A stretch of DNA of 64,000 bases from Sulfitobacter sp. EhC04. GTDB taxonomy: Bacteria; Pseudomonadota; Alphaproteobacteria; Rhodobacterales; Rhodobacteraceae. The stretch covers positions 186,001 to 250,000 of the forward strand of contig NZ_LXYI01000023.1 in assembly GCF_001650875.1 (NCBI RefSeq), read 5' to 3'. Within the stretch, counting starts at the first letter, position 1. Each line of letters opens with the position of its first letter. The position numbers and the translations under genes are program-made. The notes beneath the pieces were generated by a model. That model was not told where the DNA came from and made no database searches. It was given only the letters and a program-made list of their open reading frames with translations. Shown one piece after another: positions 2,894-19,166 of this stretch.

Positions 2894-4558
2894 ATGACAG
2901 CAAACCCCGACACAGACGACAGCCAGAAATCGGCGCTATCGGTGCGCGGTCTGACGGTCACATTGCCGGATGGAATGGAACGTGCCCATGCGGTCAAGGA
3001 TGTCTCCTTCGATCTCGAACGGGGCCAGATTCTGTGTGTGATCGGTGAATCCGGGTCCGGCAAGTCGGTGACGGCGAACACCATCATGGGGCTGCTGCCC
3101 CGTGTGATCGGTGTCAGCGCCGGTTCTATCATGCTGGACGGGCGCGACATTATCGGCATGGACGCCGAGTCTCTGCGCGACCTGCGCGGTCGGGTGGTGT
3201 CGATGATCTTTCAGGACCCCCTGTCGGCGCTGAACCCGCTGATGACGGTGGGCGCGCAGGTTGATGAGGCCATGCGGGCGCATGGGATCGGCACACCGGC
3301 GTCGCGGCGCAAGCGGGCTGTCGAATTACTGACCGAGGTGGGGCTGCCGGACCCCGCGCTGATGTACAGTCAATACCCTTTCCGCCTGTCCGGCGGGCAA
3401 CGCCAGCGGGTGATGATCGCCATGGCGCTTGCGCTTGAGCCGTCGATCCTGATCGCGGATGAGCCGACAACGGCACTGGACGTGACCACACAGGCGCAAA
3501 TCCTCGAACTGATCCGCGACATCCAGCGCCGCAAGGGCATGAGCGTGCTTTTCATCACTCATGATTTCGGCGTGGTGGCCGAGATCGCTGACAGCGTTGT
3601 GGTGATGGAAAAGGGCCATGTGGTTGAACAGGGCACGGCAGATCAGGTTCTGAAATCACCTGAACATCCCTATACCAAGCGGCTGATCGCCGCCGTGCCG
3701 CATCTGACCGACAAGGACCGCCCGTCGTTGCAGGCCAAAGGCAGTGGCACGGTGCTGCAGGTTGAAGGGCTGACCAAGACCTATCGCAGCGGCAGTGCCC
3801 TGCTGCGCAGCCTGCGCGTAGTGCCTGCGGTGCGCGAGGTATCGTTTGAACTGGCCAGCGGTCGGACGCTGGGCGTGGTGGGCGAAAGCGGGTCGGGAAA
3901 ATCGTCGCTCGGGCGGTTGCTGACCAAGCTGATGGATTGTGACGGTGGGCGCATCCTGTTCGAAGGCCGTGACATTGCCCCGATGGCGGAGGCCGAGTTC
4001 CGCCCACTGCGCCAGCGCATCCAGATGATTTTTCAGGACCCGTTTGCATCGCTGAATCCGCGCGCGACGATTGGCCGGATCTTGACCGTGGGGCCAATTG
4101 CGCACGGGATGCCCTATGCCAAGGCCCGCGAAGATGCGCGTGCGCTGCTGGATCTGGTTGGGCTGGATGCGGGTGCCTTCGGGCGCTACCCGCATGAGTT
4201 TTCCGGCGGACAGCGCCAGCGGATCGGCATTGCGCGCGCACTGATGTTCAAGCCGACGCTGCTGGTCGCGGACGAGGCAGTTTCGGCGCTGGATGTGTCG
4301 ATCCAGGCGCAGATCCTGCAACTGCTGGACAAGATCCAGCGCGAAACCGGGGTTTCGATGATCTTTATCACCCACGACCTGCGCGTCGCCAGCCAGATTT
4401 GCGACGATATCGCCGTCATGCAACGCGGGCGGGTCGTTGAAATGGGGCCGCCGTCGCAGATCTTTCTCAATCCGAAATCCGATTACACACGCGAACTGGT
4501 GGCCGCCATTCCGGGCGAACGCGACGAGCGTCACGCATTGGCCGCAGCCGAAGGCTGA
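2894..4558 (+). CDS. Peptide-type ABC transporter, fused dual ATP-binding protein (DppD-DppF / GsiA type)
   Basis: Cytoplasmic ATPase of a cluster-4 (dipeptide/oligopeptide/nickel family) importer, 554 residues, with two complete nucleotide-binding domains in one chain as in GsiA. The first domain has Walker [12 protein letters not shown], signature LSGGQRQRV and Walker [13 protein letters not shown]. The second has [20 protein letters not shown] and [12 protein letters not shown]. The ATG at 2894 is preceded by AAGGAAA at a good distance; the frame is open upstream but that stretch has no similarity to the family. It is the first gene of an operon with the binding protein and two permeases. 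The substrate cannot be read from the ATPase. Confidence 0.95.
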
Positions 4559-4635
4559 ATGCCGATATCCAAAGCCGTCACAAGAAACGTCTCAACAAAC
4601 CAACCATAAAATAAACCATCACACGGGAGACTAAA

Positions 4636-6303
4636 ATGACCAAATTCAGCAAGACCAGCGCAGGCTTTTCACGCCGCAATGCCCTGCGGGTTCTCGGTGC
4701 CGGTGGCGCTGCGGGCCTTTTCGCGCCGCACCTGTTGGGCAAACCCGCCTATGCGCAGACGCCTCCGGCCACACCCACGGGCCGCGTGATTGTCGGCCTG
4801 TCGCAGGAACCCACGGTGTTCAACCCGCTGATGCCACATATCGAAGTGGACGACGGTGTGAACTTTTCGCTGTTCGACGCGCTGTTCCGCATTGACCCGG
4901 AAGGCAATATCGTGCCGAACTTGGCCACCGAAGTGCCCAGCCAGGAGAATGGCGGCATTTCCGAGGACGGTCTGGAATGGCGGGTCAAACTGCGTGAAGA
5001 CGTGCGCTGGCATGACGGCGAACCCTTTACCGCAGAGGACGTGAAATTCACCCTGGAGCTGATCCTGAACCCCGATTTTCGTGCCTGGCGCACCGCGGGC
5101 CATGCGCTGTTGCGCGACATCACCGTGGTGTCCCCGACCGAGATCACCTGGCGGATGGAAGAGGTTTTTTCACCCTACATGTCATTCCTGACCGAAACCT
5201 TCATTGTCCCCGAACATATCCTTGGCAACGCGCCAGACGTCAACAATGCGGCCTTCAATCAGGCTCCGATCGGCACCGGTGCGTTCAAATGGGGCCAGCG
5301 TCTGGCCGGGGACCGTCTGGAGCTGATGGCCAACACCGAATATTTCGGCGAAGGCCCCTATGTGGAACAGCTGATCTACAAGTACATCCCGGACATGACT
5401 GTGCTGTATACCCAGTTCAAGAGCGGCGATATCGACCTGGTCGGCCAATCCTATATCACCCCCGACAACTATGCCGAGGCCAGCACGCTGCCCGACCGCG
5501 ACGTGATACTGGTGCCCAAGGGATCAGTGGAATCGATCTATCTGAACATGGAAAAACCGCAGTTTCAGGACCCTGCCGTGCGCAAGGCGCTGTACTTGGC
5601 GATTGATCGCGCTGCCATCATCGACGCGCTGAACTATGGTGTGCCCAGCCCGACCGAAACCTTCATGCCGCCGCAGTCCTACTACTACAATCCGGACCTG
5701 CCTGCGCATGAATTCAATCTCGAAACTGCCCGCCAGATTCTGGACGATGCAGGCTGGGTGCCCGGCGCAGGCGGCATACGTGAAAAGGACGGCGTGCGCC
5801 TGTCCTTTGCGAATTCGACCACTTCCGGCGCGCATCTGCGTGAACAGGCGCAGCAGTTCCTGCAGCAGACCTTTGCCGAGATCGGCGTCGAGATGAAGAT
5901 CGAGAACCTGCCGCCGGCCGTGATGTGGGGCGAGTTCTGGGGCATGTCGCAGTTTGATTCAGCGATGGTGGGGATCACCTATCTGATCGGCGCCGACCCG
6001 GATGTGACCAACCGCTTCCACAGCAAGGCGATCACGGCCCAGGGCGGCAACGGTTCGAACAATGCGCAGTATTCCAACCCGGAGGTTGACGCCTTGCTGG
6101 AAGAGGGCAGCCGCACATTCGACCCGGAAGCCCGTCGCGAGATCTATTTCCGGGTGCAGGAAATCATCCGCGAGGATCTGCCGTTCCTGCCTTTGTATGC
6201 CTACACGCAGGTTCATGGGCGCAAGGCAGGTATCGAGGGTTATATCCCCAACACCAACACGCGCACCGAATCCTGGCACGCTGCTGGCTGGTACTGGAGC
6301 TAG
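4636..6303 (+). CDS. ABC transporter substrate-binding protein, family 5, Tat-exported
   Basis: Periplasmic solute-binding protein (SBP_bac_5; DppA/OppA relatives), 555 residues. The N-terminus carries a twin-arginine signal, SRRNALRVLG, followed by a hydrophobic stretch ending near AYA, so it is probably exported folded by the Tat system, which is common for this family in Rhodobacteraceae. The body has the usual segments LVGQSYITPDNYAE and LYLAIDRAAIIDALN, and the C-terminal part is typical of the family. It follows the ATPase gene by 77 bases and precedes a strong hairpin. Ligands of the family range from di/oligopeptides to opines, nickel and sugars. The surrounding oxidases and deacylase favour an amine or amino-acid derivative, by inference only. 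Confidence 0.93.
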   Translation: MTKFSKTSAGFSRRNALRVLGAGGAAGLFAPHLLGKPAYAQTPPATPTGRVIVGLSQEPTVFNPLMPHIEVDDGVNFSLFDALFRIDPEGNIVPNLATEVPSQENGGISEDGLEWRVKLREDVRWHDGEPFTAEDVKFTLELILNPDFRAWRTAGHALLRDITVVSPTEITWRMEEVFSPYMSFLTETFIVPEHILGNAPDVNNAAFNQAPIGTGAFKWGQRLAGDRLELMANTEYFGEGPYVEQLIYKYIPDMTVLYTQFKSGDIDLVGQSYITPDNYAEASTLPDRDVILVPKGSVESIYLNMEKPQFQDPAVRKALYLAIDRAAIIDALNYGVPSPTETFMPPQSYYYNPDLPAHEFNLETARQILDDAGWVPGAGGIREKDGVRLSFANSTTSGAHLREQAQQFLQQTFAEIGVEMKIENLPPAVMWGEFWGMSQFDSAMVGITYLIGADPDVTNRFHSKAITAQGGNGSNNAQYSNPEVDALLEEGSRTFDPEARREIYFRVQEIIREDLPFLPLYAYTQVHGRKAGIEGYIPNTNTRTESWHAAGWYWS

Positions 6304-6312
6304 CGCATCTGT

Positions 6313-6348
6313 TGCCGCCCGGACCTTCCGATCCGGGCGGCAGCTTTT
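6313..6348 (+). terminator. Stem-loop after the binding-protein gene
   Basis: A perfect 11-bp stem, TGCCGCCCGGA (6313-6323) with TCCGGGCGGCA (6332-6342), 8-base loop, followed by GCTTTT. It begins 10 bases after the binding-protein stop, and the permease gene follows at 6382. It looks like an attenuator or mRNA-stabilising hairpin that keeps binding-protein expression above that of the permeases. Confidence 0.7.
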
Positions 6349-6381
6349 CCTTGACGTCACCTGTTGCAAAAGGAGGGGACC

Positions 6382-7332
6382 ATGCCCGCATTCCTGCTTA
6401 ATCGCTTCATGCAGAGCGCCGTGCTTCTGGTCATAGTCTCGATCATCGGCTTCACCGTGCTCAACCTGATTCCGGGTGGTCCGATGTCGCAATATGCGCT
6501 TGATCCCGGCATGACCCAGGAAGACATGAACCGTCTGGCAGAACAGCTGGGCCTGAACCGTCCGATCTGGGTGCAGTATCTTGAGTGGGTCTGGCGGCTT
6601 TTGCATGGGGACTGGGGCACCTCGTTCCGCGATGGCGCGCCGGTGCTGACGGTGATCAGCCGACATATCTTTGCCACGCTGCTGCTGATGGGTTCGTCGA
6701 CCGTGATCGCCATTGCAGTGGGCACCTGGATCGGCATTCGCGGCGCGACGCACCGCTATTCCATTTTCGATTACACCGCGACCGTCGGCGCGATGATCGC
6801 CCTGTCGATCCCGACATTCTGGTTCGGCCTTGTGGGCATCTATGTCTTTTCGTTGCAACTGGGATGGCTGCCTGCGGGCAACATGTACACCATCGGCGAT
6901 GGATCCGTCCTGAACTACCTGCATCACCTGATCATGCCCTCGGTGGTTCTGGCGCTGGTTCATATCGCGATCTGGAGCCGTTACATGCGCACCGCGACAC
7001 TGGACGTGATCAGCCAGGAGTTCGTCAAAACCGCCCGCGCCAAAGGTGTCTCAGAACGCCGTGTGCTGATGAAACATGTTGTCGGCAATGCGCTGCTGCC
7101 GATGATCACGCTGGCAGGCGTGCAATTGCCCGCGATCCTGACCGGGGCGCTGGTGACCGAAACCGTCTTTACTTGGCCCGGCATGGGACGGTTGTTCCTG
7201 GATAGCCTTGGGTACAGTGATTACCCGGTTGTGATGGGGCTTTTGATGTTCTCGGCGGTGCTGACCATCGCGGGCAACCTGATTGCCGATATCGTCGTCG
7301 CGCTGGTCGATCCGCGCATCCGCCTGGCCTGA
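6382..7332 (+). CDS. ABC transporter permease, DppB/GsiC type
   Basis: Inner-membrane permease of the same peptide-type importer, 316 residues, with an N-terminal membrane helix (FMQSAVLLVIVSIIGFTVL), a DppB N-terminal domain and the BPD_transp_1 domain. The EAA-type coupling loop is visible as TARAKGVSERRVLMKHVVG. The ATG at 6382 has AGGAGG 6-11 bases upstream. It should pair with the permease at 7362 to form the transmembrane channel. Confidence 0.94.
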   Translation: MPAFLLNRFMQSAVLLVIVSIIGFTVLNLIPGGPMSQYALDPGMTQEDMNRLAEQLGLNRPIWVQYLEWVWRLLHGDWGTSFRDGAPVLTVISRHIFATLLLMGSSTVIAIAVGTWIGIRGATHRYSIFDYTATVGAMIALSIPTFWFGLVGIYVFSLQLGWLPAGNMYTIGDGSVLNYLHHLIMPSVVLALVHIAIWSRYMRTATLDVISQEFVKTARAKGVSERRVLMKHVVGNALLPMITLAGVQLPAILTGALVTETVFTWPGMGRLFLDSLGYSDYPVVMGLLMFSAVLTIAGNLIADIVVALVDPRIRLA

Positions 7333-7361
7333 GCGCCATTAGAACACAGGAGGCCACCACC

Positions 7362-8240
7362 ATGACCACCCTTACCGCAGACCAGGCGCAAAGCCATTGG
7401 TGGCAAAGCCGCGTGATGCGCCGTTTTCGCAGTCACCGGCTGGCGCTATTGGGGCTTTGTATGATCAGCCTGCTGACGCTGGCCTGTGTCATTGGCCCCT
7501 ATCTGCTGCCCTACGATTCCCTGTACATCGACCTGCGCGCGCGTTTTGCACCGCCTTTTTCCGGGGATCATTACCTGGGCACCGATCCGCTGGGCCGTGA
7601 TGTCGCGGCGCGGCTGCTCATGGCGGGGCGGATTTCGCTGTTGGTCGGTTTCAGCGCCATGATTCTGGCCACGATGGTCGGCACGGTGGTGGGCGTGATC
7701 GCGGGTTATCGCGGCGGCTGGATCAGCGCCGTCCTGATGCGCATTGTCGATGGATTTTTGTCCTATCCGTCGATCTTTTTGCTGCTGGCGCTGGCGGCGG
7801 TGCTGAAACCCAGCCCCATGATGATCACGGTAATCATCGCCGTTACCGGCTGGATGGAGGTCGCCCGGATCGTCGAGGCCGAGGTGCGGTCGCTGAAAGA
7901 GCGTGAATTCGTCCTGGCCGGGCGGATGCTGGGGTTAAGCCGGATGCATATCATGTTCCGCGAGATCCTGCCCAATGTCACCGGGCCGATCATTGTCGCT
8001 GCGACCCTGACCGTGGCCCGTGCCATCCTGCTTGAGGCCTATATCAGCTTTCTGGGGTTTGGTATCCAGCCGCCGCTGCCAAGCTGGGGCAACATGCTGA
8101 ACGGGGCGCAGCAGTATCTGGCCAGCGCGCCATGGCTTGCAATCATACCGGGCATTGCAATTACCATCGCCGTGTCCAGTTTCAACTTTATCGGCGACGG
8201 GCTGCGCGATGCGCTTGACGTCCGCAACGACACTGTCTGA
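7362..8240 (+). CDS. ABC transporter permease, DppC/GsiD type
   Basis: Second permease of the importer, 292 residues. It has the N-terminal OppC-like helix (LALLGLCMISLLTLACVIG), the conserved periplasmic segment HYLGTDPLGRDVAARLL and an EAA loop (AGRMLGLSRMHIMFREILP). AGGAGG precedes the ATG. Its stop codon overlaps the start of the FAD oxidoreductase at 8240 (TGATG), so import and the first oxidation are probably translated together. Confidence 0.94.
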   Translation: MTTLTADQAQSHWWQSRVMRRFRSHRLALLGLCMISLLTLACVIGPYLLPYDSLYIDLRARFAPPFSGDHYLGTDPLGRDVAARLLMAGRISLLVGFSAMILATMVGTVVGVIAGYRGGWISAVLMRIVDGFLSYPSIFLLLALAAVLKPSPMMITVIIAVTGWMEVARIVEAEVRSLKEREFVLAGRMLGLSRMHIMFREILPNVTGPIIVAATLTVARAILLEAYISFLGFGIQPPLPSWGNMLNGAQQYLASAPWLAIIPGIAITIAVSSFNFIGDGLRDALDVRNDTV

Positions 8241-9565
8241 TGGGAAACACGATGCGTACCTCTTCGAAGCTTGCTGACAAGGCCACGCCCTATTGGTGGG
8301 AGGCCGCCCCACCCGGACCGGCACCCGTGCAGCCCCTGGCCAAGTCGGTTGATGTGGCCATTGTCGGTGCCGGATATGCCGGGCTGGCCGCAGGGCTGAC
8401 ACTGGCGCGGGCAGGCCGGTCGGTCGCGGCCTTTGACGCGATGCATCCGGGCGAGGGCGCTTCATCGCGTAACGGCGGTATAACCAGCGGCTCGATCCGC
8501 CCCAGCCATGCCGCGATAACCCGGACTTTTGACGAGGACACCGCCTTTGCCATCGAGGCCGAGAGCAAGGCCGCGCGGGAGTTCCTCTATGAGTTGATCC
8601 GCAGCGAAGAGATCGACTGTGACTTTCGCCTGGCCGGGCTGTTCAAGGGCGCGCTGGGGTACGGGCAATACGATACGATGGCCCGTGGTGCCGAGGCCCT
8701 GGCAAAACGGCTGGGCATCGAGACCTATGCAGTGCCCCACGGGGAACAGGAAAAATATATCGGCACCGGCTTTTATCGCGGCGGCGTTGTGCGCAAGGAC
8801 ATCGGCGGACTGCATCCGGGCAAGTTCCACGCAGGTCTGTTGCAACTGGCGCTGGCCGCCGGTGTCGCCGTTCACGGGCATACCCCGGTCACGGCGATCA
8901 AGCGCGATGGCGCGACGTTCCGTGTCCAGACCGCGTCAGGCACTGTCGAGGCGCGACAGGTTCTGGTCTGCACCAATGGCTATACGGACGGGGCCGCGCC
9001 CTATCTGCGCCGCCGCCTGGTTCCGGTGCGCAGCCGGATCATCGTCACAGAGGAACTGTCACCCGAGGTGATGAACCGGCTGATGCCGCAACGCATGATG
9101 ATGGGCGAGGGGCGGCAACTGGGCTACTACTATCGCCCCACACCCGACGGCCGCCGCATTCTGCTGGGTGGCCGCGAAAGCGGACATGGGGGCGACGCCA
9201 CTGTGCCGACACAGCGGCTGCGCCAAGGGCTGGCCGAACTGTTCCCCGAACTAGACGGGGTGCGGCTGTCGCACAGCTGGTTCGGCAATGTCGCGATGAA
9301 CCGGGACATGCTGCCACGGATCTTTGAAAAGGACGGGATCGTCTATGCCAGCGGATTTTGCGGCTCGGGGGTGGTCTGGGCACCCTGGGTTGGCACCCGC
9401 GCCGCGCACCGGCTGCTGGGCAACGGCGAGCAGGGACGCTCTGCGCTATTCTCGCGTCCGCCAGCGGCAGTGCCGCTGTACCGGGGCAACCCCTGGTTCA
9501 TGCCCGCGATCATCAGGGGCTATGCCTTGCAGGACCGCATCGCATGGTGGCGCAGCAAGCGATAA
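8240..9565 (+). CDS. FAD-dependent oxidoreductase, DAO family
   Basis: 441-residue flavoprotein of the D-amino-acid oxidase / glycine oxidase / PuuB-like family, which oxidises C-N bonds of amines or N-substituted amino acids. The Rossmann motif VAIVGAGYAGLAAG is near residue 37, the family segment GASSRNGG follows, and GFCGSGVVWAPWVG lies in the C-terminal FAD-binding part. It overlaps the permease gene by one base, tying it to the imported substrate. A second ATG four codons in (8252) is an alternative start. It is one of three DAO-family genes in the first 22 kb. The substrate is not known. Confidence 0.9.
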   Translation: MGNTMRTSSKLADKATPYWWEAAPPGPAPVQPLAKSVDVAIVGAGYAGLAAGLTLARAGRSVAAFDAMHPGEGASSRNGGITSGSIRPSHAAITRTFDEDTAFAIEAESKAAREFLYELIRSEEIDCDFRLAGLFKGALGYGQYDTMARGAEALAKRLGIETYAVPHGEQEKYIGTGFYRGGVVRKDIGGLHPGKFHAGLLQLALAAGVAVHGHTPVTAIKRDGATFRVQTASGTVEARQVLVCTNGYTDGAAPYLRRRLVPVRSRIIVTEELSPEVMNRLMPQRMMMGEGRQLGYYYRPTPDGRRILLGGRESGHGGDATVPTQRLRQGLAELFPELDGVRLSHSWFGNVAMNRDMLPRIFEKDGIVYASGFCGSGVVWAPWVGTRAAHRLLGNGEQGRSALFSRPPAAVPLYRGNPWFMPAIIRGYALQDRIAWWRSKR

Positions 9566-9659: not shown

Positions 9660-11846
9660 ATGAGCACGATGTTTGACGGTGCGGTTGTGACCGGGCTCTG
9701 GCGCTATCCGATCAGTACGCTGGGCGGCGAGCATTGCGATAGCCTCCAGTTGGCCCAAGGCGGGCCGGTCGGGGACCGCACCCATGGGCTTTTCGATGCC
9801 GAGACTGGCGAGAATGCCTATCCCGTGCGCGATCCCCGCTGGAACCGGGCCCCCGAGATATCTGCACGGATCAGCAACGGCACCCCCCAGGCTTCTTGTG
9901 ACGGAAAGGTCTGGCTTGATGTCGAAAGCGCGCCAGCCCGTGAGATGCTGTCGTCGCATTTCGGGCGCGGGGTAGAGGCCCGACGTTACGGTGCATTGTC
10001 CGCTGACGGCATTGTCGCCGAGGCCCGATATTCGATGGCACCGGTGCATCTGATCAGTCGGCAGGCGCTGGCGCAATTGTCCCGAGTCCTTCCGCAAAGC
10101 GACATTGATCCGCGCCGTTTTCGCCCGAACATTGTGGTTGATTTGCCAAGCGCACCAGAGGGTATTCCGGAATACAATCTGCTTGGCCAAAAATTCCGGA
10201 TTGGGAACGTCATCTTGCGCGGCGTCTCGCATTGCGGGCGATGCGGGTTTACTACTTTAGCGCAGGGTGAATTGCCAGCCGATCCTGACGTCTTGCGGAC
10301 ACTGGTCGACCGTTTTCAACGCAATCTGGGGATCTATTGTGTTGTCGAAACGGAAGGGACGCTTCAGGTCGGACAGAGGCTTGAGATCCCGCGCCCTCGG
10401 CCAATTGTGATCGTGGGCGCGGGGCAGGCCGGAGCGATGGCCGCACGAACCCTGCGTGAATTGGGGTATCGCGGGCCTGTACACTTGATTGGCAACGAGG
10501 CAAGGCCACCCTACGAGCGGCCAGAGCTGTCCAAGGCGCTGTTCCGTGGCGTGCCGGATACCGATGCGATGACGCTGGATGAGGCTAAGAGCCTGGACAT
10601 CGACCTGAGGCTCGACAGTGGGGTTGTGGCGGTGGACCCGGATACCAGCCAACTGACGCTGGCCGATGGCAACAGTCTCGACTTTGCGCGGTTGGTCATT
10701 GCAACCGGCGGGCGGGCGCGGAATCCGATGGCGACGACCGGGCCACGCGTGCGCACATTGCGGACCCGCGACGACGCGCAGGCCATCGCTTTGGCAGCAC
10801 CGCGCCGCTTGTTGATCCTGGGGGGCGGCTGGATCGCCATGGAGGCCGCCGCTGCCGCCCGTGCCGCCGGGATCGACGTGACGGTTCTGGTGCGTGGACC
10901 GGCGCTGGCGCATCGCTTGCTGCCGAGAGGAGTTTCCGATCATCTTGCCGCATTACACCGCAGTCATGGTATCGATCTTCGTCTGGGTGTCACCGCTGAG
11001 TTCTCTGTCGATGAAAATGCGGTTCACGCCCGCATCGACGATTGTGAGATGTCGGCGGATATGCTGCTGATTGCCACCGGGATCGCGCCCAACGATGACC
11101 TTGGCCGCCAGGCCGGGATCGCGTCTGACGCAGGGATTATCGCAGATGCCGCCGGGAAAACCGGCAACCCGCTCATCCATGCAGTTGGCGATGTGGCATT
11201 GCAACCGGGACCATCAGCGCCCGCGCGGATCGAAAGCTGGCAGAATGCCAACGATCAGGCGCGTGCATGTGTGCAGGCAATGCTGGGCCTGCCATTATCG
11301 CCCCGCGCGCCACTGCGGTTCTGGTCGGATCAATTCGGCAAGCGGATTCAGATTGCGGGCCTTCCTCATGCGGAGGCCACGCTTTGCAGCGTAACCGGGG
11401 ATGCGGAACGGCCATTCTGGGACTATGGCGATTTTGCAATCGGCGTGGACCGCCCGCAGGAAATTCACTGCTTCGATTCAGAGCCCCGGCCAGAGACTGC
11501 GCGCCCTCAGCCACCTGTGCCAGTTGGGCCGGGCCGCAAACTTGTCGCGCGTTCCGCCGTGCCGGAGGGCGCATTGCTTCGCATCAAAGACCCCGAGTAT
11601 GGCGTGTTGGCCGTGACACGAACCAACGGCCGGGTCTATGCTGTTGCGGATGCCTGTCCGCATGCTCTGGCGTCTTTGTCGGATGGTTTCGTAGCAGATG
11701 GGCATATCGTTTGCCCCGTGCATTTCGCGGAATTTGACCTTGCGGATGGTACGCCACGCAAAGCGCCTGCGGGATGCAGGAAATTGACCGTCCATGCGGT
11801 CAGTGAAACCGACGATCTGGTCCTGATCCACGACGGACAAACATAG
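9660..11846 (+). CDS. Three-domain fusion: MOSC (mARC/YcbX-like) - FAD/NAD(P)H reductase - Rieske [2Fe-2S]
   Basis: A 728-residue protein with three recognisable parts. Residues about 1-245 are a MOSC N-terminal barrel plus MOSC domain: GLWRYPISTLGGE, VGDRTHGLFD, RRFRPNIVVD and HCGRCGFTT, whose last cysteine matches the molybdenum-ligating cysteine of mARC/YcbX. Residues about 248-625 are a putidaredoxin/BphA4-type reductase with two nucleotide motifs (VIVGAGQAGAMAA, LLILGGGWIAMEAAA) and HAVGDVAL. Residues about 630-728 are a Rieske domain with CPHA and CPVH ligands. Known mARC/YcbX enzymes reduce N-hydroxylated compounds using separate redox partners; here all partners appear to be on one chain. 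ATG 9660 was chosen because the upstream codons (from TTG 9627) do not fit the fold. Confidence 0.88.
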   Translation: MSTMFDGAVVTGLWRYPISTLGGEHCDSLQLAQGGPVGDRTHGLFDAETGENAYPVRDPRWNRAPEISARISNGTPQASCDGKVWLDVESAPAREMLSSHFGRGVEARRYGALSADGIVAEARYSMAPVHLISRQALAQLSRVLPQSDIDPRRFRPNIVVDLPSAPEGIPEYNLLGQKFRIGNVILRGVSHCGRCGFTTLAQGELPADPDVLRTLVDRFQRNLGIYCVVETEGTLQVGQRLEIPRPRPIVIVGAGQAGAMAARTLRELGYRGPVHLIGNEARPPYERPELSKALFRGVPDTDAMTLDEAKSLDIDLRLDSGVVAVDPDTSQLTLADGNSLDFARLVIATGGRARNPMATTGPRVRTLRTRDDAQAIALAAPRRLLILGGGWIAMEAAAAARAAGIDVTVLVRGPALAHRLLPRGVSDHLAALHRSHGIDLRLGVTAEFSVDENAVHARIDDCEMSADMLLIATGIAPNDDLGRQAGIASDAGIIADAAGKTGNPLIHAVGDVALQPGPSAPARIESWQNANDQARACVQAMLGLPLSPRAPLRFWSDQFGKRIQIAGLPHAEATLCSVTGDAERPFWDYGDFAIGVDRPQEIHCFDSEPRPETARPQPPVPVGPGRKLVARSAVPEGALLRIKDPEYGVLAVTRTNGRVYAVADACPHALASLSDGFVADGHIVCPVHFAEFDLADGTPRKAPAGCRKLTVHAVSETDDLVLIHDGQT

Positions 11847-12099: not shown

Positions 12100-13068
12100 A
12101 TGCAGAGTGAAAGCGGGGGCAGGGTCAAAAGCCATCACGCCGACAGTGAGAGCGCTGCGCATTACGAGGTCTTTATGGCCGAACTATCCCCTGAAGAAGA
12201 CGCGCGTCTGAAGCTGGACAGCTACGACGCCGATATCCGACCTCTTGTTGCCGCCGACCGCGCGCTGTTGCATGAGCTGACCGTTTCAGTGTTGTGGCCG
12301 CATCGTGCGTTGGATCTTGATATGCTTCTGTCGCTTGGCAAGGGGTACATCGCCCATGATGAGATTGGCCGCCCGCTTGGATCAGCCATGTATTTCCCGG
12401 CAGGCGATGATTTTGCTATGTGCGGGATGATGATGACCACACCGCGTTTGCAGACCCAGGGTGTCGGGCGGCGGCTCTTGCGGCGTATCCTGGCAGATTG
12501 CAAAGGCCGCGATTTGCGGTTGTCAGCCACGCGGTCTGGATATCGGCTGTACCGTGATGCCGGGTTTTTGACCGTCGGGACGATCTGGCAGCAGCAGGGG
12601 ATCGCGCGGCTTGCCCATTTGCCTGAAGCTGTCCCGGGGTTGGATGTGCGTCCGCTTGCAGCGGCCGACCATGGCGCCGTGGCCGCATTGGACACCCTGG
12701 CCTTTGGTGCCGACCGTCAGTCGGTCAAGGCGGCGATGCTGCGCGAGTCTGGCGGTGTCGTTGCCCTGCGCGACGGCGAAGTCCGCGGTTTTGCGTTGGT
12801 GCGGTCCTTTGGCAAGGGGGTGGTGATTGGTCCGGTGGTGGCGGAGGATGACCGGATGGCGATGCTGCTCTGCGCCCCGCTGTTCCAGCAATACGAGGGC
12901 CAGTTTGTCCGTCTGGATACACCGCAGCAAAGCGAAAATTTCAAAGCGTTCCTGTTTGCCGCAGGCCTGGGCGGGTTCGACACCTGCACCGAGATGCGGA
13001 TCGGACCGCAGCGGCGGGCCAAGACTGGTGCGTGTCTTTATGGTCTGGCCGCGCATTCCTTGGGATAA
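12100..13068 (+). CDS. GNAT-family N-acetyltransferase with C-terminal Acetyltransf_18-like domain
   Basis: 322-residue two-domain protein. The N-terminal half is a GNAT fold with the acetyl-CoA loop RLQTQGVGRRLLRRI and the strand-helix SATRSGYRLYRDAGF; the C-terminal half (about 185-322) resembles the second domain of YitH-like acetyltransferases. It is clearly paralogous to the gene at 16930: both share WPHR, SxxKG, the GxGRRL/GRAL loop, LRLxAT, LY...GF and QQGIA/HQGIA. The ATG at 12100 has a GGGA-type site; an internal ATG at 12175 (MAELSPEEDARL) is an alternative start close to where the similarity begins. The acyl acceptor is unknown; the neighbours suggest an amine or amino acid. Confidence 0.88.
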   Translation: MQSESGGRVKSHHADSESAAHYEVFMAELSPEEDARLKLDSYDADIRPLVAADRALLHELTVSVLWPHRALDLDMLLSLGKGYIAHDEIGRPLGSAMYFPAGDDFAMCGMMMTTPRLQTQGVGRRLLRRILADCKGRDLRLSATRSGYRLYRDAGFLTVGTIWQQQGIARLAHLPEAVPGLDVRPLAAADHGAVAALDTLAFGADRQSVKAAMLRESGGVVALRDGEVRGFALVRSFGKGVVIGPVVAEDDRMAMLLCAPLFQQYEGQFVRLDTPQQSENFKAFLFAAGLGGFDTCTEMRIGPQRRAKTGACLYGLAAHSLG

Positions 13069-13090
13069 CTGTGCGCCGCCTCGCTCCGGT

Positions 13091-14392
13091 TCAGGAAATG
13101 CGGTCTTTCAGCGCGAACCACATGCCGACCAACGGCAGGAACCACGGCTTGCCGCTGTGCAGCGGGATCGCGGGCCAGTCCAGCCCGTCGAGTGGATTGG
13201 TGTCCTTGCGTCCCATCGCCATATCCGCCAACGCCTGCCCGATCAATGTGGACATCTGTGCACCGTGGCCGGAATAGCCCATGCCATAGATCATACCGCA
13301 GGCCTCGCCCGCGCGGGGGTAGCGATCCTTGGTCATGCCGACAAGGCCACCCCAGCAATAGTCCAGTTGGACCTGCGCCAGTTGCGGAAAAATCCGTCCT
13401 ATCGCACGGTGCAGGACCTGGCCTGACAGCGCATCGGATTGCTGGTCGGATGTGGCCGAAAACCGGGCGCGCCCGCCAAAGATCAGGCGGTTGTCCGGGG
13501 ACAGACGGAAATAGTTGCCGATGTTCATGGAGGTCACGCAGGTGCGGTTGCCCGGAAGCGTCGCCGCAACCTCGTCCGGTGTCAGCGGGCGGGTGGCGAC
13601 GATGAACGAGCCGACCGAGATGATCCGTTTGCGGAAATAGGCCAGCGGCGCCTTGGCCACGCTGTCGGAATAGCTGCCCGAATAAGCTCCGGTGGCGACG
13701 ATGACGCGGTCGGCATTCAGCGTGCCCTTGGGTGTTTTCAGCGTCCAGCCACTGCCGAAACGGTCGCGCGCGACAACCGGCGCGCCCTCCCAGATCAGCG
13801 CGCCGTGGCGGTGGGCGGCATCCGCCAGGCCGGTGGCATAACGGCCCATGTGCATCATCGCGGATTTACCGTATAGCACCGCGCCATGAAATTCATCCGA
13901 CCCGATTTCAACGGCCAGATCCGCCTTTTCCAGCCAGCGCGTGTCGGGGTCGACTTCTTTGTGGATCAGCTCGAAGCCGCGCCGCAAACCCGCGACATGC
14001 GAAGGTTTGGACGCCAGTTTCAGCTTGCCCGAACGGCGGAAGTCACAGTCGATGTCTTCTTCGGCGATGAGATCCTCGATCATGTCGATAGAGCGGTCAT
14101 AGGCCTTGTAGAGCGCATGGGCGCGCGCCGCACCCAGATGCGATTTTGCTTCCGCATAGCCATGGGCCATGCCGTTGTTCAGATGCCCGCCGTTGCGCCC
14201 CGAACCGCCCGCGCCGATGTGGTCGGCTTCCAACAGGGCCACGCTGACGCCCGCGCGCGCCAGCCGCCGCGCGGCGTTCAGCCCGGTAAAGCCGCCGCCG
14301 ATCACCGCCAAGTCAATCTTGCCCGATACCGGGCCTTCCTGTGCCTTTGCGAAGGCAGGTGCGGTGTCATGCCAGAAAGGCGTATACTTCAT
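13091..14392 (-). CDS. FAD-dependent oxidoreductase, PuuB-like (DAO family)
   Basis: 433-residue DAO-family flavoprotein resembling gamma-glutamylputrescine oxidase (PuuB/OrdL group). The nucleotide motif is LAVIGGGFTGLNAA near residue 28, followed by GAGGSGRNGGHLNNG, and the C-terminal GMGYSGHGAQMST is typical of the group. ATG 14392 is preceded by GGAGG; the codon before it (GTG) is in frame but less likely. It is transcribed with the HAD gene at 14409 (16-base gap) against the surrounding genes. The reaction is probably oxidative deamination of an amine or gamma-glutamyl amine to an aldehyde, which the aldehyde dehydrogenases at 21746 or 24276 could take over. Confidence 0.88.
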   Translation of the reverse strand: MKYTPFWHDTAPAFAKAQEGPVSGKIDLAVIGGGFTGLNAARRLARAGVSVALLEADHIGAGGSGRNGGHLNNGMAHGYAEAKSHLGAARAHALYKAYDRSIDMIEDLIAEEDIDCDFRRSGKLKLASKPSHVAGLRRGFELIHKEVDPDTRWLEKADLAVEIGSDEFHGAVLYGKSAMMHMGRYATGLADAAHRHGALIWEGAPVVARDRFGSGWTLKTPKGTLNADRVIVATGAYSGSYSDSVAKAPLAYFRKRIISVGSFIVATRPLTPDEVAATLPGNRTCVTSMNIGNYFRLSPDNRLIFGGRARFSATSDQQSDALSGQVLHRAIGRIFPQLAQVQLDYCWGGLVGMTKDRYPRAGEACGMIYGMGYSGHGAQMSTLIGQALADMAMGRKDTNPLDGLDWPAIPLHSGKPWFLPLVGMWFALKDRIS

Positions 14393-14408
14393 CACTGCCT
14401 CCAGGGCG

Positions 14409-15074
14409 TCAAAGGCCCACTACCGCAGCCAGACCCGAGATGTCCTTGATTTCGGTATAGCCATAATAGGGGTTTGCCGGTTCGTGGCCACGGTTCACCC
14501 AGACCTTGTGGTTGATGCCCAGATCATGCGCGGTCATCAGGTCATAGCGGAAACTGGATGAGACATGCAGAACGTCCTCGGGGCCGCACCCCAGCATGTC
14601 GAACATATACTCAAATGCCTGCATCTGCGGCTTGTAGGCCTGCGCGCTTTCGGCGGTGTAAACATGGGCGATGGGTGCGCCAAGTTTTGCGATGTTGTGC
14701 GGAATCTGGTCGTTCATCGAATTGGTCAGGGCCACCAGCGGGATCTTGTTCGCGATTTTGGCCAGGCCTGCGGGCACGTCGGCGTGTGGCCCCCATGTCG
14801 GCACGCGGGTATAGATTTCGGCGGCCACGGCGGGGTCAAAGGCGACACCGTTGCGCTTGCATGTGCGTTCCAGCGCATTGTGGACGATTTCGGCATAGGG
14901 CTTCCATGCGCCCAGCACCTCGTCCAGCCGATAGCCCGAGAAATCGGCCACGAACTTGTCCATCTGCGCGGGCGACAGCTGGTCTGCGTAATGGGCGCGT
15001 GCGGCGCCTGCCATGTCGAAGTTGATCATCGTGCCGTGGCAGTCGAAGCTGATAAATTTGGGGCGGAAGGTCAT
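14409..15074 (-). CDS. HAD-superfamily hydrolase, 2-haloacid dehalogenase type II family
   Basis: 221-residue HAD protein. Motif I is SFDCHGTMI with the nucleophilic aspartate at residue 10, motif II is LVALTNS, the lysine lies in SAQAYKPQ, and the acidic motif is around DVLHVSSSFRYDLMTAHD. This matches the haloacid-dehalogenase (type II) subgroup, where the nucleophile attacks carbon rather than phosphorus, but family membership does not prove dehalogenation. It has a cap-domain insertion after motif I. It is the upstream partner of the PuuB-like gene, and its promoter region (15075-15294) is shared with the divergent cupin gene. Confidence 0.87.
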   Translation of the reverse strand: MTFRPKFISFDCHGTMINFDMAGAARAHYADQLSPAQMDKFVADFSGYRLDEVLGAWKPYAEIVHNALERTCKRNGVAFDPAVAAEIYTRVPTWGPHADVPAGLAKIANKIPLVALTNSMNDQIPHNIAKLGAPIAHVYTAESAQAYKPQMQAFEYMFDMLGCGPEDVLHVSSSFRYDLMTAHDLGINHKVWVNRGHEPANPYYGYTEIKDISGLAAVVGL

Positions 15075-15294
15075 CGGTCTCTCCGGAGTTTGCGTTGCAA
15101 TGATGTTCGCCCGTTTCGCGCCACATGGCTTGCCGCGTTTGAGGATTTGCGAGCATTAAATTGCGTTTATCGCGCGGCATCCGGCATGACCTGCCGCCGG
15201 GGTGGAAACTTCGGTCAGGATCGCGGGGCAAGCTGGTGCACTGTGTATGAACAGACAAACGCGCCGGTTGGCGCATCAACAGAAAGCCCCTATC

Positions 15295-15675
15295 ATGGCC
15301 CTTATCGTCCCGATTGATATCGCCCCCGCATTTGCCCCCCGCGAACATGTGGCCGCCCCCGACCGCTTGATCGCAGGCGGACCGGCGTTTCGCACATGGG
15401 CGTTGGACGAGGCGCTGGCAGAGGCGGCGCAATGGGGTCAGATCCGCACCGGCGTCTGGGAAGCCACACCCGGCACGACGCTGTCGATCAAGGGGGACAC
15501 ATTCGAGTTCTGTCATATACTGTCAGGACGGGCCGAGATCAGCGAAGAGGGCGGTGCGACACATAGTTTTGGTGCGGGCGACAGTTTTGTGATGAAGCCG
15601 GGCTTTGTGGGCCAGTGGAAAACGCTTGAAACCCTGCGCAAGATCTATGTCATCGCAGCACCTGTCGCGGGGTGA
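15295..15675 (+). CDS. Small cupin-domain protein (DUF861/Cupin_3 type)
   Basis: 126-residue single-domain cupin related to the ureidoglycine-aminohydrolase/EutQ-like Cupin_3 group. It has GVWEATPGTT, an ISEEGG turn and FGAGDSFVMKPGF, the usual two-motif barrel. The ATG at 15295 starts MALIVPIDIAP; the open frame upstream is only a leader. Its stop overlaps the beginning of the ArgE-like gene, so the two are translationally coupled and the cupin probably acts on, or senses, the same small molecule. A specific reaction cannot be assigned. Confidence 0.85.
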   Translation: MALIVPIDIAPAFAPREHVAAPDRLIAGGPAFRTWALDEALAEAAQWGQIRTGVWEATPGTTLSIKGDTFEFCHILSGRAEISEEGGATHSFGAGDSFVMKPGFVGQWKTLETLRKIYVIAAPVAG

Positions 15676-15680
15676 GTGCT

Positions 15681-16793
15681 ATGCAGGCATCCGCCGTTGA
15701 TTTGCTGGAACGCTTTGTCGGATTTCCCACTGTAGTCGGCACGCCCAACGACGGGCTGATGCAGTTTGTGGCCGATTACCTGCGCGAACATGGGGTGCCC
15801 TATCATCTGCTCAAAGGGCCGGAAGGCGACCGCTACAACCTTTTCGCCACCATCGGGGATGCGTCGCGGCCCGGTTATATCCTGTCGGGTCACGTCGATG
15901 TGGTGCCTGCGGGCGAGCCGGAATGGCGGGGCGATCCCTTTGTCCTGCGCCGCGACGGCGGACGGCTGATCGGGCGGGGCAGTTGCGACATGAAGGGCTA
16001 TGTGGCGGCAGTTCTGGCGACTGTGCCCGAACTGGTGCGTATGGACCTGTCTGCGCCGGTGCATATCGCGCTGTCCTATGACGAAGAGGCGGGCTGTCGC
16101 GGTGTGCCGCATATGATTGCGGCGCTGCCGGATCTCTGCGCGCCGCCGTTAGGCTGTATCGTCGGAGAGCCGACCGGGCTGGTGCCGGTGCTGGCACACA
16201 AGGGCAAGGCGGCGCTGCGGCTGGTGGCGCAGGGCAAGTCGGGGCACAGTTCGCGCCCTGATCAGGGTGCAAACGCCATTCACGCGCTCTTGCCCGCGCT
16301 GGAGGCCGCGCGCGTTCAGGCAGAGGCACTGCGCGATGGGCCGCAAGATGGACGTTTCGCGCCGCCTTATTCCAGCCTTCAGATTGGCACTCTGCAGGGC
16401 GGTCAGGCGCTGAACATCATCCCCGATCATGCCGAGGCGAGCATCGAGGCGCGGGCGATTGCAGGTGTCGATCCCAAGACGCTGCTGGCACCGGTAATGG
16501 ATGCCTTGGGGCCGCGGGTGCGCGGTGAATGGCTGTCGTCCTATCCGGCACTTTCGCTGGATGCGGGTCATCCGCTGGCCGCTTTGGCTGCGCAGATCTC
16601 GGGGCGCGACCCGCTGGGCGCCGTCAGCTTTGGCACCGAGGCGGGGCTCTTCCAGCAGGCGGGCATTGCGTCGGTGATTTGCGGTCCGGGCGACATCGGG
16701 CGCGCGCACCGGCCCGAGGAATATCTGACCGAGGAAGAGTTGGCCGGGACGGTTGCAATGATCCGGGCGCTGGGGCGACGACTGTCGGTGTGA
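15681..16793 (+). CDS. ArgE/DapE-family M20 deacylase
   Basis: 370-residue zinc amidohydrolase of the acetylornithine deacetylase family. Metal and catalytic motifs are intact: GHVDVVP, GRGSCDMKG, SYDEEAG, GEPTG, a HSSRPDQG dimerisation-domain histidine, FGTEAGLFQ and GRAHRPEEYL. It removes an N-acyl group (acetyl or similar) from an amino acid or amine. GGGGTGAG lies just before the ATG at 15681; a GTG at 15672 that overlaps the cupin stop is the alternative. Lying between two GNAT paralogues and beside an aminotransferase, it may deacylate the imported compound rather than serve arginine synthesis. Confidence 0.9.
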   Translation: MQASAVDLLERFVGFPTVVGTPNDGLMQFVADYLREHGVPYHLLKGPEGDRYNLFATIGDASRPGYILSGHVDVVPAGEPEWRGDPFVLRRDGGRLIGRGSCDMKGYVAAVLATVPELVRMDLSAPVHIALSYDEEAGCRGVPHMIAALPDLCAPPLGCIVGEPTGLVPVLAHKGKAALRLVAQGKSGHSSRPDQGANAIHALLPALEAARVQAEALRDGPQDGRFAPPYSSLQIGTLQGGQALNIIPDHAEASIEARAIAGVDPKTLLAPVMDALGPRVRGEWLSSYPALSLDAGHPLAALAAQISGRDPLGAVSFGTEAGLFQQAGIASVICGPGDIGRAHRPEEYLTEEELAGTVAMIRALGRRLSV

Positions 16794-16929
16794 TCGCAAG
16801 AATGGTACGCGGCATTTTCTGCGGCGGCGCTGATGTGTTGCAACAGAAAACTGCGGCGGCGGGCGGGGATCAGAATAAAACTGCCGCCTTCAGGATTCTA
16901 AATTGGTGACAAAAAAGGATGGATTGTTA

Positions 16930-17775
16930 ATGACCGCTTCCAAACCCGACACCGCCACATTGTCGCAAGACAATTTTCAGATCACGGCCTTTGAACCAAC
17001 CCATCTGGACGGTGCGCTGCGTCTGTCCGCCGAGGCAGGTTGGCCGCACCGCACCGAGGACTGGCAGTTGGCACTGTCGGTGTCCAAAGGGGTTGTGGCG
17101 CTGGCGGGGGGCGAGGTTGTCGGAACCGCGTTGTGCTCCCCCTTTGGCGATGTGGCGGCGATGAACATGATTATCGTCGATGCGCGGATGCGCGGGCGCG
17201 GGCTGGGGCGGGCGCTGATGGAACAGGTCATTGCCTTTGGCGGCGCGCGCGAGTTGCGTCTGACCGCCACCGCAGACGGGCTGCCGCTGTATGAGAAGCT
17301 GGGCTTTGCGGCCTGTGGCAAGGTGCTTCAGCATCAGGGCATCGCGCAGGATGCGACGCCCGAATTGCCCGTATACACCGGCGATGTGCAGGATATGCCC
17401 GCGCTGGCGGCGCTGGATTTGCAGGCATCGGGCCTGTCGAGGGCCGGATTGCTGGCGGTGATCGCCGCCCAGGGCGAAGTGTTGCGCTGCGGAAACGGAT
17501 TCGCCTTGTTGCGCGATTTCGGGCGCGGGCGGGTGCTGGGGCCGGTTGTGGGGCAGGACGTGGCCAGTGCTGCGGCGCTGATGGCCGAAGCCGCTCGGCG
17601 CTGCGCCGGTCAGTTTCTGCGCGTTGATCTGCCCTCCGATGCAGGCCTGAGCAAGACCGCGACGCAGCTGGGTCTGGTGGCGGCTGGCGGTGGTGTTGCC
17701 ATGAAAAAGGCTGCGAAAACGCGCGCGCCGTCAAACTATAAAACCTTTGCGCTTTTGTCGCAGGCGCTGGGATAA
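16930..17775 (+). CDS. GNAT-family N-acetyltransferase, paralogue of the 12100 gene
   Basis: 281-residue GNAT protein with the acetyl-CoA loop RMRGRGLGRALMEQV, ELRLTATADGLPLYEKLGF and a C-terminal second domain ending SQALG, matching AHSLG in the first paralogue. ATG 16930 is supported by AAGGA about ten bases upstream; the TTG/GTG codons further up are less likely. It precedes the aminotransferase by a few bases, so it is co-transcribed with amine metabolism. Polyamine, amino-acid or antibiotic acetylation are all possible. Confidence 0.88.
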   Translation: MTASKPDTATLSQDNFQITAFEPTHLDGALRLSAEAGWPHRTEDWQLALSVSKGVVALAGGEVVGTALCSPFGDVAAMNMIIVDARMRGRGLGRALMEQVIAFGGARELRLTATADGLPLYEKLGFAACGKVLQHQGIAQDATPELPVYTGDVQDMPALAALDLQASGLSRAGLLAVIAAQGEVLRCGNGFALLRDFGRGRVLGPVVGQDVASAAALMAEAARRCAGQFLRVDLPSDAGLSKTATQLGLVAAGGGVAMKKAAKTRAPSNYKTFALLSQALG

Positions 17776-17792
17776 CCTGAGTGGGACGGATC

Positions 17793-19166
17793 ATGTTGAC
17801 CAATTCTCTTGTCGAGCTGGACCGCCAGCACCTTGTTCATCCGGTGTCGTCGTTTCGTGGCCACGAGGCCCGCGGCGTGCGTGTCTTGCGGTCGGCGAAA
17901 GGGGCGACTGTCACCGACAGCGAAGGGCGCGAGTTGCTGGACGGATTCTCGGGCCTTTGGTGTGTAAATGCCGGATATGGCCACGAAAGCGTGGTGGAAG
18001 CCGCCGCCGAGCAGATGCGCAGGCTGCCCTATGCCACCGGATATTTCGATCTGGGGTCCGAACCGCCGATCCGGCTGGCCGGGGCATTGGCCGACCGGGC
18101 GCCGGGTGATCTGAACCATGTTTATTTCACCCTTGGCGGGTCAGATGCGGTGGACAGCACGATCCGCTTTGTCCGTTATTACTGGCATGCAAAGGGGCAG
18201 CCCGAACGCGATCAGTTCATCTCGGTCGAGCAGGGCTACCATGGTTCCACGACAATGGCCGCCGGGCTGACGGCTTTGCCCGGTTTCCATGACGGATTTG
18301 GCGTGCCCTATGCCTGGCAGCACAAGATTTCGTCGCATTATCTTTATCGCAATCCGCTGGGCGACGATCCGCAGGCGGTGATTGATGCGTCGTTGGCCGA
18401 ATTGCGCGCCAAGGTTGCCGAGATTGGCGAAGACCGCGTTGCGGCGTTCTATGTCGAACCTATTCAGGGATCGGGCGGCGTGCTGGTGCCGCCACCGGGC
18501 TGGATCAAGGCGATGCGCGACCTGTGCACCGAACTGGACATTCTCTTTGTCGCTGATGAGGTCATCACCGCATTTGGCCGCACCGGCCCGATCTTTGCCA
18601 GTTCGGATGAGGGGATCGTGCCTGATCTGCTGACCTGCGCCAAAGGGCTGACCTCGGGCTACGTGCCGATGGGGGCGGTGATCATGTCTGATGATGTCTA
18701 TGAGGTGATTGCCGAAGGGGCAGGGGCCAAAGCCGTGGGCCATGGGTTCACCTATTCCGCGCATCCGGTCTCTGCCGCTGTCGCGCTTGAGGTGCTGGCG
18801 CTCTATGAGGGCGGGCTGTTCGAGAACGGCATTCGCGCGGGCAAACGCCTGATGGCGGGGCTGGAAAGCCTGCGTGATCATCCGCTGGTGGGCGATGTGC
18901 GCGGGCGCGGGATGCTGGCGGCGGTAGAACTGGTCACCGACAAGGCGCGCAAGACGCCATTGCCGGCCGAAGTGCAGCCCGCAATCCGGCTGTTTGATCG
19001 GGCCTGGGAACAGGGTCTTGTGGTGCGGTCCTTCCCTCAGGGCATCTTTGCCTATGCGCCGCCACTCTGTTGCACGGATGACGAGATCGACCTGATCGTG
19101 GCGCGGACCCGCAAGGTTCTGGATATCACCCTGGACGATCCCGAAATTCGCGCGGTGCTGCGCTGA
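17793..19166 (+). CDS. Class III (omega-amino acid/amine : pyruvate type) aminotransferase
   Basis: 457-residue PLP-dependent transaminase, fold type I. The phosphate-cup segment GSDAVDSTIRF, the PLP-ring aspartate in VADEVITAFGRTG and the Schiff-base lysine in TCAKGLTSGYVPMGA are all present. The general pattern matches omega-amino acid, putrescine or taurine-type aminotransferases of Proteobacteria that use pyruvate as acceptor. The start is ATG 17793; GTG 17781 in the same frame is possible. The last base of its stop is the first base of the hydroxyacid dehydrogenase gene, so the oxo product of one may be reduced by the other. Confidence 0.92.
   Translation: MLTNSLVELDRQHLVHPVSSFRGHEARGVRVLRSAKGATVTDSEGRELLDGFSGLWCVNAGYGHESVVEAAAEQMRRLPYATGYFDLGSEPPIRLAGALADRAPGDLNHVYFTLGGSDAVDSTIRFVRYYWHAKGQPERDQFISVEQGYHGSTTMAAGLTALPGFHDGFGVPYAWQHKISSHYLYRNPLGDDPQAVIDASLAELRAKVAEIGEDRVAAFYVEPIQGSGGVLVPPPGWIKAMRDLCTELDILFVADEVITAFGRTGPIFASSDEGIVPDLLTCAKGLTSGYVPMGAVIMSDDVYEVIAEGAGAKAVGHGFTYSAHPVSAAVALEVLALYEGGLFENGIRAGKRLMAGLESLRDHPLVGDVRGRGMLAAVELVTDKARKTPLPAEVQPAIRLFDRAWEQGLVVRSFPQGIFAYAPPLCCTDDEIDLIVARTRKVLDITLDDPEIRAVLR

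What the first reader, a model, noticed from the sequence alone, without database searches (positions are those of the whole stretch)
9660..11846. Self-contained mARC/YcbX-like N-reductase: MOSC, NAD(P)H reductase and Rieske domain in one chain
Eukaryotic mARC needs cytochrome b5 and its reductase, and E. coli YcbX has a fused ferredoxin but borrows a reductase. Here the molybdenum MOSC module (HCGRC cysteine, RRFRPN), a putidaredoxin-reductase-type flavodomain and a Rieske centre with complete CPH/CPVH ligands are fused, so NAD(P)H could drive Mo-dependent reduction without partners. Its place beside amine oxidases suggests N-hydroxylated or N-oxide metabolites as substrates.
Basis: partly seen in the sequence, partly recalled or inferred. 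Interest (0 to 1): 0.78.

Follow-up and report, generated by a model that had tools for sequence, protein, structure and literature searches.

The report
Self-powered molybdenum N-reductase in catabolic island
A bacterial gene really does fuse a molybdenum-type reductase domain to its own flavin reductase and iron-sulphur electron carrier, and it recurs near amine- or amino-acid-breakdown genes, which may help to find what such enzymes naturally act on.

Summary
Confirmed. Window 9660-11846 (+) encodes one 728-aa chain: MOSC_N-like/MOSC, a putidaredoxin-reductase/BphA4-type flavoprotein and a Rieske [2Fe-2S] domain. It is no assembly accident: 7 complete proteins (window included) share the order, and an eighth locus is broken in its record. 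All 7 keep the MOSC cysteine, FRPN, the flavin GxG and CPH/CP[VL]H. A family profile finds human mARC1 at E 4.7e-17. In a tree the fusions are one clade, whose sister is a stand-alone MOSC gene. That gene, and two branches of the fusion clade, lie in versions of one large island (peptide-type ABC transporter, DAO-type oxidases, ArgE-like deacylase, class III aminotransferase, aldehyde dehydrogenases), pointing to breakdown of an imported nitrogen compound. The coenzyme site reads VRG, as in engineered BphA4 variants, so I infer NADPH. Most likely function: NADPH-FAD-Rieske-Mo electron flow reducing an N-O bond; the substrate is unknown. Self-contained MOSC reductases are already in print (Vibrio VCA0924; YiiM-like Q89NR8), so that idea is not new; I found no description of this reductase/Rieske pairing or of the catabolic linkage in the library searched. 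New variant of a known kind.

The parts
9660..11846 (+). fusion gene, 728 aa: MOSC_N-like + MOSC + ferredoxin reductase + Rieske
9660..10034 (+). MOSC_N-like beta-barrel region (residues 1-125), Lys of mARC/YcbX replaced by Ser19
   Evidence: weak PF03476 (19.1 bits); profile aligns part of it with mARC1; column counts
10035..10382 (+). MOSC domain (residues 126-241)
   Evidence: PF03473 61.4 bits; mARC1 by profile E 4.7e-17
10242..10244 (+). codon of Cys195, taken as the equivalent of mARC1 Cys273 (Mo ligand)
   Evidence: alignment; Cys in 35 of 35 MOSC rows
10404..11261 (+). Pyr_redox_2 flavoprotein module (residues 249-534)
   Evidence: BphA4 E 3.7e-57; putidaredoxin reductase Z 43
10890..10898 (+). 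VRG (411-413) at the BphA4 E175/T176/Q177 coenzyme-specificity site
   Evidence: alignments
11319..11384 (+). start of a Reductase_C domain, only 22 of 85 profile positions, under cut-off
   Evidence: PF14759 23.3 bits against 25
11607..11771 (+). Rieske [2Fe-2S] domain (residues 650-704) with CPH and CPVH ligands
   Evidence: PF00355 47.6 bits; ligands in 7 of 7 complete fusions
8240..9565 (+). DAO-family flavo-oxidase (DAO1) just upstream; in L009 its match ends 8 bases before the fusion
2807..8240 (+). peptide-type ABC transporter: ATPase, binding protein, two permeases
   Evidence: ATPase, binding protein; permeases named from position, sequence and synteny only
12100..25757 (.). rest of the conserved island: GNATs, DAO2, HAD type II, ArgE-like deacylase, class III aminotransferase, GhrA-like, DAO3, aldehyde dehydrogenases, tartrate-dehydrogenase-like
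   Evidence: shared in part with L009/L112, L044/L110, L063/L109
2027..2737 (-). Lrp/AsnC-type regulator that travels with the island

Best explanation
The protein is a self-contained, probably NADPH-dependent, molybdenum N-reductase. Electrons pass as hydride to FAD in the putidaredoxin-reductase-type module, one at a time to the Rieske cluster, and then to a Cys195-bound molybdopterin Mo in the MOSC module. There an N-OH (or N-oxide, oxime) group is reduced by two electrons with loss of water. Its place is a catabolic step: it removes oxygen from nitrogen in an imported amine or imino acid, or in an intermediate, so that the neighbouring flavo-oxidases, deacylase, aminotransferase and aldehyde dehydrogenases can finish the breakdown. 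Shown by sequence: the modules, the ligands, the kinship and the linkage. Inferred: Moco loading, electron path, NADPH preference, N-O chemistry. Unknown: the substrate.
For: All three modules with complete cofactor motifs. The MOSC profile finds mARC1 first, E 4.7e-17, with its CSRC opposite CGRC (C195) and FRPN opposite FRPN; C195 in 35 of 35 rows, Arg155 in 34 of 35. A low-confidence MOSC model ranks three mARC1 entries first, then YuaD; YiiM of Geobacillus is sixth. FdR module like BphA4/putidaredoxin reductase; that BphA4's partner is a Rieske ferredoxin is recalled. The 7 fusions are one clade, 100/99. The genome has a MoaA-family match, so Moco can probably be made. Linkage: DAO oxidase within 7 kb in 7 of 8 fusion loci, 2 of 17 stand-alone MOSC loci, 0 of 20 stretches of the own genome; aldehyde dehydrogenase 5 of 8, 2 of 17, 0 of 20. 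The review read in part says that all MOSC proteins so far studied in vitro show N-reductive activity (PMC10637980, passages).
Against: No experiment and no Mo, FAD or Fe content. The Lys of mARC that binds the Moco phosphate (recalled) is Ser19 in 7 of 7 fusions, so cofactor binding may differ. MOSC_N scores below cut-off in the window protein. Structure models are weak (pLDDT 74.4 whole, 60.3 MOSC; residues 194-221, with C195, are under 50 in the whole model), so the Moco pocket and electron distances are untested. Island genes name no N-oxygenated substrate. L026, L055 and L056 have different neighbours, so one common substrate is doubtful. An ABC ATPase nearby is no more telling than background (4 of 8 against 7 of 20), and L044 has no DAO gene within 7 kb (its DAO1 starts about 7.5 kb away). 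The DAO counts use related loci and partly self-derived queries.
Confidence: 0.6

Rival explanations
1. The FdR-Rieske half mainly feeds an oxygenase in trans (for instance the LigXa-type Rieske oxygenase at window 27632-28951, minus strand), and the MOSC part is an accessory or evolutionary passenger.
For: FdR + Rieske ferredoxin is the standard electron supply of three-component oxygenases (recalled). A Rieske oxygenase lies about 16 kb away, and in Sulfitobacter DFL-14 its 96% orthologue lies about 11 kb from the fusion on the same contig.
Against: G275 has no match to it, G810 only a 30% match over residues 19-186, L010's genome only a 29% match over 108 residues, and in L011's genome the 66% orthologue is C1:558072-559379, apart from the fusion's contig if contig numbers follow the records; all four carry the fusion. 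For L055 and L056 only the plasmid record was searched (no match; 28% partial). The MOSC Mo ligand is kept in 7 of 7 fusions, and the sister MOSC gene sits in a version of the island without any FdR or Rieske match at E 1e-3 in the 40 kb read.
Confidence: 0.12
2. [quoted passage not shown]
For: Closest studied bacterial relatives do this (PMC5818509, passages; PMC3831636, start of abstract in a listing).
Against: Rare distribution (2 further fusion genomes, G275 and G810, in the samples; checked), repeated linkage to catabolic genes, and two other MOSC genes already in this genome.
Confidence: 0.15
3. The MOSC domain is a sulphur or Moco carrier/maturation module rather than a catalyst, as first predicted for MOSC domains.
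For: MOSC domains were first described as predicted sulphur carriers (title in the reference list of PMC5818509); cysteine invariant.
Against: A built-in NAD(P)H electron chain has no evident role in sulphur transfer; no NifS-like domain was found; the nearest solved homologue is the N-reductase mARC1.
Confidence: 0.06

Closest known systems
human mARC1 (PDB 6fw2, 7p41)
   Same: MOSC_N/MOSC layout, Cys273 equivalent, FRPN
   Different: mARC borrows cytochrome b5 and its reductase; here the electron chain is fused; Lys of the YPVKS motif is Ser here
E. coli YcbX
   Same: MOSC core with a fused [2Fe-2S] domain, C and FRPN conserved
   Different: YcbX carries a plant-type ferredoxin and works with CysJ; here a Rieske domain and a BphA4-type reductase
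Vibrio VCA0924 / VPA0411 and YiiM-like Q89NR8
   Same: Mo, flavin and [2Fe-2S] modules in one chain (PMC5818509, PMC10637980; passages)
   Different: VCA0924 is described as holding the domains of YcbX and CysJ, Q89NR8 as YiiM-like; the word Rieske does not occur in either paper by the listing; I did not fetch their sequences
BphA4/BphA3, TodA/TodB, Pdr reductase-ferredoxin systems
   Same: FdR fold (Z about 40-43); Rieske ligands as in dioxygenase ferredoxins
   Different: separate proteins serving oxygenases; here fused in the order MOSC-FdR-Rieske, Reductase_C mostly lost

Membership tests
MOSC superfamily | MOSC domain over the Pfam cut-off | tested here: met
   61.4 against 22.7 bits
MOSC superfamily | invariant Mo-ligand cysteine | tested here: met
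   C195; 35 of 35 rows, opposite the second Cys of mARC1 CSRC
mARC/YcbX group | MOSC_N barrel before MOSC | tested here: inconclusive
   window 19.1 bits, cut-off 25; 16 of 17 members, window included, match at E 0.01 or better; several stand-alone relatives are over cut-off
mARC/YcbX group | Moco bound and N-oxygenated compounds reduced | not testable with these tools
   needs protein
YcbX proper | C-terminal plant-type ferredoxin (Fer2) | tested here: not met
   no Fer2 match at E 0.001; Rieske instead
BphA4/Pdr-type ferredoxin reductase | Pyr_redox_2 fold with FAD and NAD(P) glycine motifs | tested here: met
   7 of 7 keep GxG of the FAD site (the third Gly is Ala in L026)
BphA4/Pdr-type ferredoxin reductase | complete Reductase_C domain | tested here: not met
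   22 of 85 positions, 23.3 against 25 bits
Rieske ferredoxin domain | CxH...CxxH ligands | tested here: met
   7 of 7 complete fusions
reductase of a Rieske oxygenase | the neighbouring oxygenase co-occurs with the fusion | tested here: not met
   no match in G275, only partial 29-30% matches in G810 and L010's genome; another oxygenase as partner is not excluded

The most novel reading that the evidence does not exclude
A separate class of self-sufficient MOSC N-reductase, with a BphA4/Rieske electron chain acquired once, that serves nutrition rather than detoxification: it opens imported N-oxygenated amino acids, amines or hydroxamate fragments for catabolism, giving MOSC enzymes a physiological substrate that can be read from a gene cluster.
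Probability: 0.3. Interest if true: 0.75.

Novelty: new variant of a known kind. Interest (0 to 1): 0.55.

Why it matters
The natural substrates of mARC and its bacterial counterparts are still debated (PMC10637980, passages). A one-chain version that needs no partner could be assayed with NAD(P)H alone, and its recurring place in a catabolic island offers candidate growth substrates that a knock-out could test. It also shows another way of wiring an electron chain to a MOSC domain, with modules of the oxygenase-reductase kind.

Tried and rejected
Substrate guesses considered from memory (siderophore-type N-hydroxydiamines, hydroxyguanidine from canavanine, ectoine, homarine) were not supported. 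I did not search for marker genes of these pathways one by one; the genes identified did not include the ones I would expect for canavanine or ectoine use, and the searches (listings only) showed nothing tied to this gene set. Proline-betaine/hydroxyproline use fits L026 and L056 only (proline racemase in L026; DHDPS family and betaine transport in both), not the window.

A viral-contig scan for relatives found none. The whole-chain fold search was filled by reductases, so it says nothing on MOSC. The promoter/terminator scan was uninformative; no terminator-like site was found in 8000-12200.

Slips and dropped rows: the first MOSC column count read minus-strand loci on the wrong strand and is void; one search replaces it. 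Not or the tree: L058 (stop in frame), L056 (broken frame), and L023, L032, L036, L037, L061 (partial or not taken); L073 was left out of the tree only. The linkage count left out L029 and L042 (short contigs or contig ends) and several loci held with 1.5 kb flanks only; it uses DAO queries from L026 and L055 as well as the window, and both loci were also hit by window queries. One search used E 1e-15; the FdR/Rieske absence in L109 rests at E 1e-3. Papers listed but not opened include PMC5317091, PMC6559788 and PMC1779556.

Full report
Observation. One frame, TTG 9627 / ATG 9660 to the stop at 11846, encodes 728 residues from the ATG. Pfam finds MOSC at 126-241, Pyr_redox_2 at 249-534 and Rieske at 650-704, all above their cut-offs. 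One match in the genome covers the whole chain; the other 9 cover the reductase or Rieske part only. NCBIfam names no family for the MOSC part (0 of 17 family members matched at E 0.01).

Is it real? A scan of genome contigs gave 8 loci, 3 of them full length: Sulfitobacter sp. DFL-14 (78%), a Rhodobacteraceae MAG (67%) and Hwanghaeella grinnelliae (43%). Others came from genome and plasmid searches: G275 (L026), G810 (L044) and Ensifer adhaerens plasmid pB (L055). Sinorhizobium meliloti AK57 pSymA (L056) carries the same order but the reading frame is broken in the record. So there are 7 complete proteins and 8 loci. All 7 keep the flavin GxG, both Rieske ligand pairs and the MOSC cysteine. 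The fusion is rare: with cut-offs of E 1e-10 (MOSC part as query) or 1e-25, the only fusions met were the window's genome, G275 (295 family genomes) and G810 (292 order genomes); none besides the window's own among 385 class or 398 phylum genomes. The samples overlap. The other MOSC loci returned by these searches were checked for reductase and Rieske matches beside them and had none.

MOSC module. A profile of 17 family MOSC regions finds human mARC1 first (E 4.7e-17), aligning part of the N-terminal barrel and the MOSC domain; mARC1 CSRC, whose second Cys I take to be Cys273, lies opposite CGRC (C195), and FRPN opposite FRPN. With the window sequence alone mARC1 is only at E 0.09, so the profile matters. 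PMC10637980 (passages and section 11) names Cys273 as the conserved Mo ligand. C195 is Cys in 35 of 35 MOSC rows, while C192 is Cys in 21. Ser19 replaces the Lys of the YPVKS motif in 7 of 7 fusions and in 23 of 35 rows; that this Lys binds the Moco phosphate in mARC is recalled. The MOSC-only model is weak (mean pLDDT 60.3), yet its best matches are three mARC1 entries, then YuaD (TM-score 0.37-0.38 by query length for mARC1, rmsd about 11, so a poor superposition).

Electron-supply modules. The flavoprotein is closest to BphA4 (E 3.7e-57) and to putidaredoxin reductase by fold (Z 43.0, rmsd 2.2 over 360 residues). PDB titles give BphA4 as E175-T176-Q177 at this site; entries with changes to A/C-R-G align with the native VRG 411-413 here. 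Six of 7 fusions have a non-acidic residue followed by Arg, while L011 has Asp-Arg. That the engineered series shifts BphA4 towards NADPH is recalled (one search listed no paper on it); NADPH preference is thus an inference. Reductase_C is reduced to a stub, and the Rieske domain follows.

Origin and context. In a 34-row tree the 7 fusions form one clade (100/99), and its sister (99/95) is the stand-alone MOSC gene of G1211. The G1211 contig, from another family, carries a version of the island: binding protein 51%, permeases 64 and 66%, ArgE-like 55%, HAD 67%, aminotransferase 60%, SSADH-like 64%, regulator 59%, plus hydantoinase A and B genes; no FdR or Rieske match at E 1e-3 in the 40 kb read. 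G810 has 16 of 18 window genes from this stretch at 55-83% identity, but its fusion is only about 47-54% identical and groups with the Ensifer protein. So one island type carries two branches of the fusion and one stand-alone MOSC, which argues for a functional link rather than passive inheritance. DAO-type oxidase genes lie within 7 kb in 7 of 8 fusion loci, 2 of 17 stand-alone MOSC loci and 0 of 20 stretches of the own genome (Fisher p 6.8e-6 against the genome, 5.4e-4 against the stand-alone loci). The loci are not independent and the own-genome stretches were spaced, not random. Family-5 binding proteins were 4 of 8, 1 of 17, 0 of 20; ArgE 2 of 8, 0, 0; ABC ATPases 4 of 8, 1 of 17, but 7 of 20 in the background, so they are not telling. 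L026 and L056 sit with betaine or hydroxyproline-type genes (DHDPS family, betaine transport; proline racemase in L026), L055 with hydantoinase A/B, so the pathway need not be the same everywhere.

Mechanism. NADPH to FAD to Rieske to Mo to an N-O bond is the economical reading. Moco can probably be made (MoaA-family match). The main rival, that FdR-Rieske serves the Rieske oxygenase at 27632-28951, has some support: the oxygenase is 96% conserved and about 11 kb from the fusion in Sulfitobacter DFL-14. It is weakened because G275 has no match and G810 and L010's genome only partial 29-30% matches. Whether the island's substrate or an intermediate carries the N-O group is not settled.

Novelty. 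Self-contained MOSC reductases exist in print: Vibrio VCA0924/VPA0411 with the domains of YcbX and CysJ, and YiiM-like proteins with flavin and [2Fe-2S] domains (PMC5818509, PMC10637980; passages). PMC6147048 lists domain fusions of molybdoproteins and holds no mention of Rieske (0 occurrences, passages seen). Searches for MOSC with Rieske listed no paper whose title or abstract start describes this architecture; of the two papers, passages were read in one (PMC2700814: separate genes). The library lacks most subscription journals and preprints, so absence in print is not proven.

Noticed in passing
window 27632-28951 (-): LigXa-type Rieske oxygenase beside a glutamine-synthetase-family gene (26106-27563, -); both are next to the island in Sulfitobacter DFL-14 too (96 and 91%), and a 66% oxygenase is in Hwanghaeella's genome.
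   Followed up: partly
window 48667-51363 (+): A P450 gene (48667-49842) followed by a ferredoxin reductase with Reductase_C over its cut-off (50194-51363), possibly a separate P450 redox set.
   Followed up: no
L055:3201-7355 and L063:5309-9363: Hydantoinase A/B pairs, 62 and 70% identical between the two, near a fusion in one genome and near the sister stand-alone MOSC in the other; may hint at a cyclic amide in the pathway.
   Followed up: partly
L064 and L065: Stand-alone MOSC genes of two related genomes sit between an acetyl-CoA-synthetase-like gene and a cyclopropane-synthase-like gene, a different context from the fusion's.
   Followed up: no
L056:10001-12227: The S. meliloti AK57 pSymA copy is split over several frames in the deposited record; whether this is sequencing error or decay is not known.
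   Followed up: no
window 61025-63949 (-): A molybdopterin oxidoreductase (974 aa), a further Mo-enzyme family member in the same genome.
   Followed up: no
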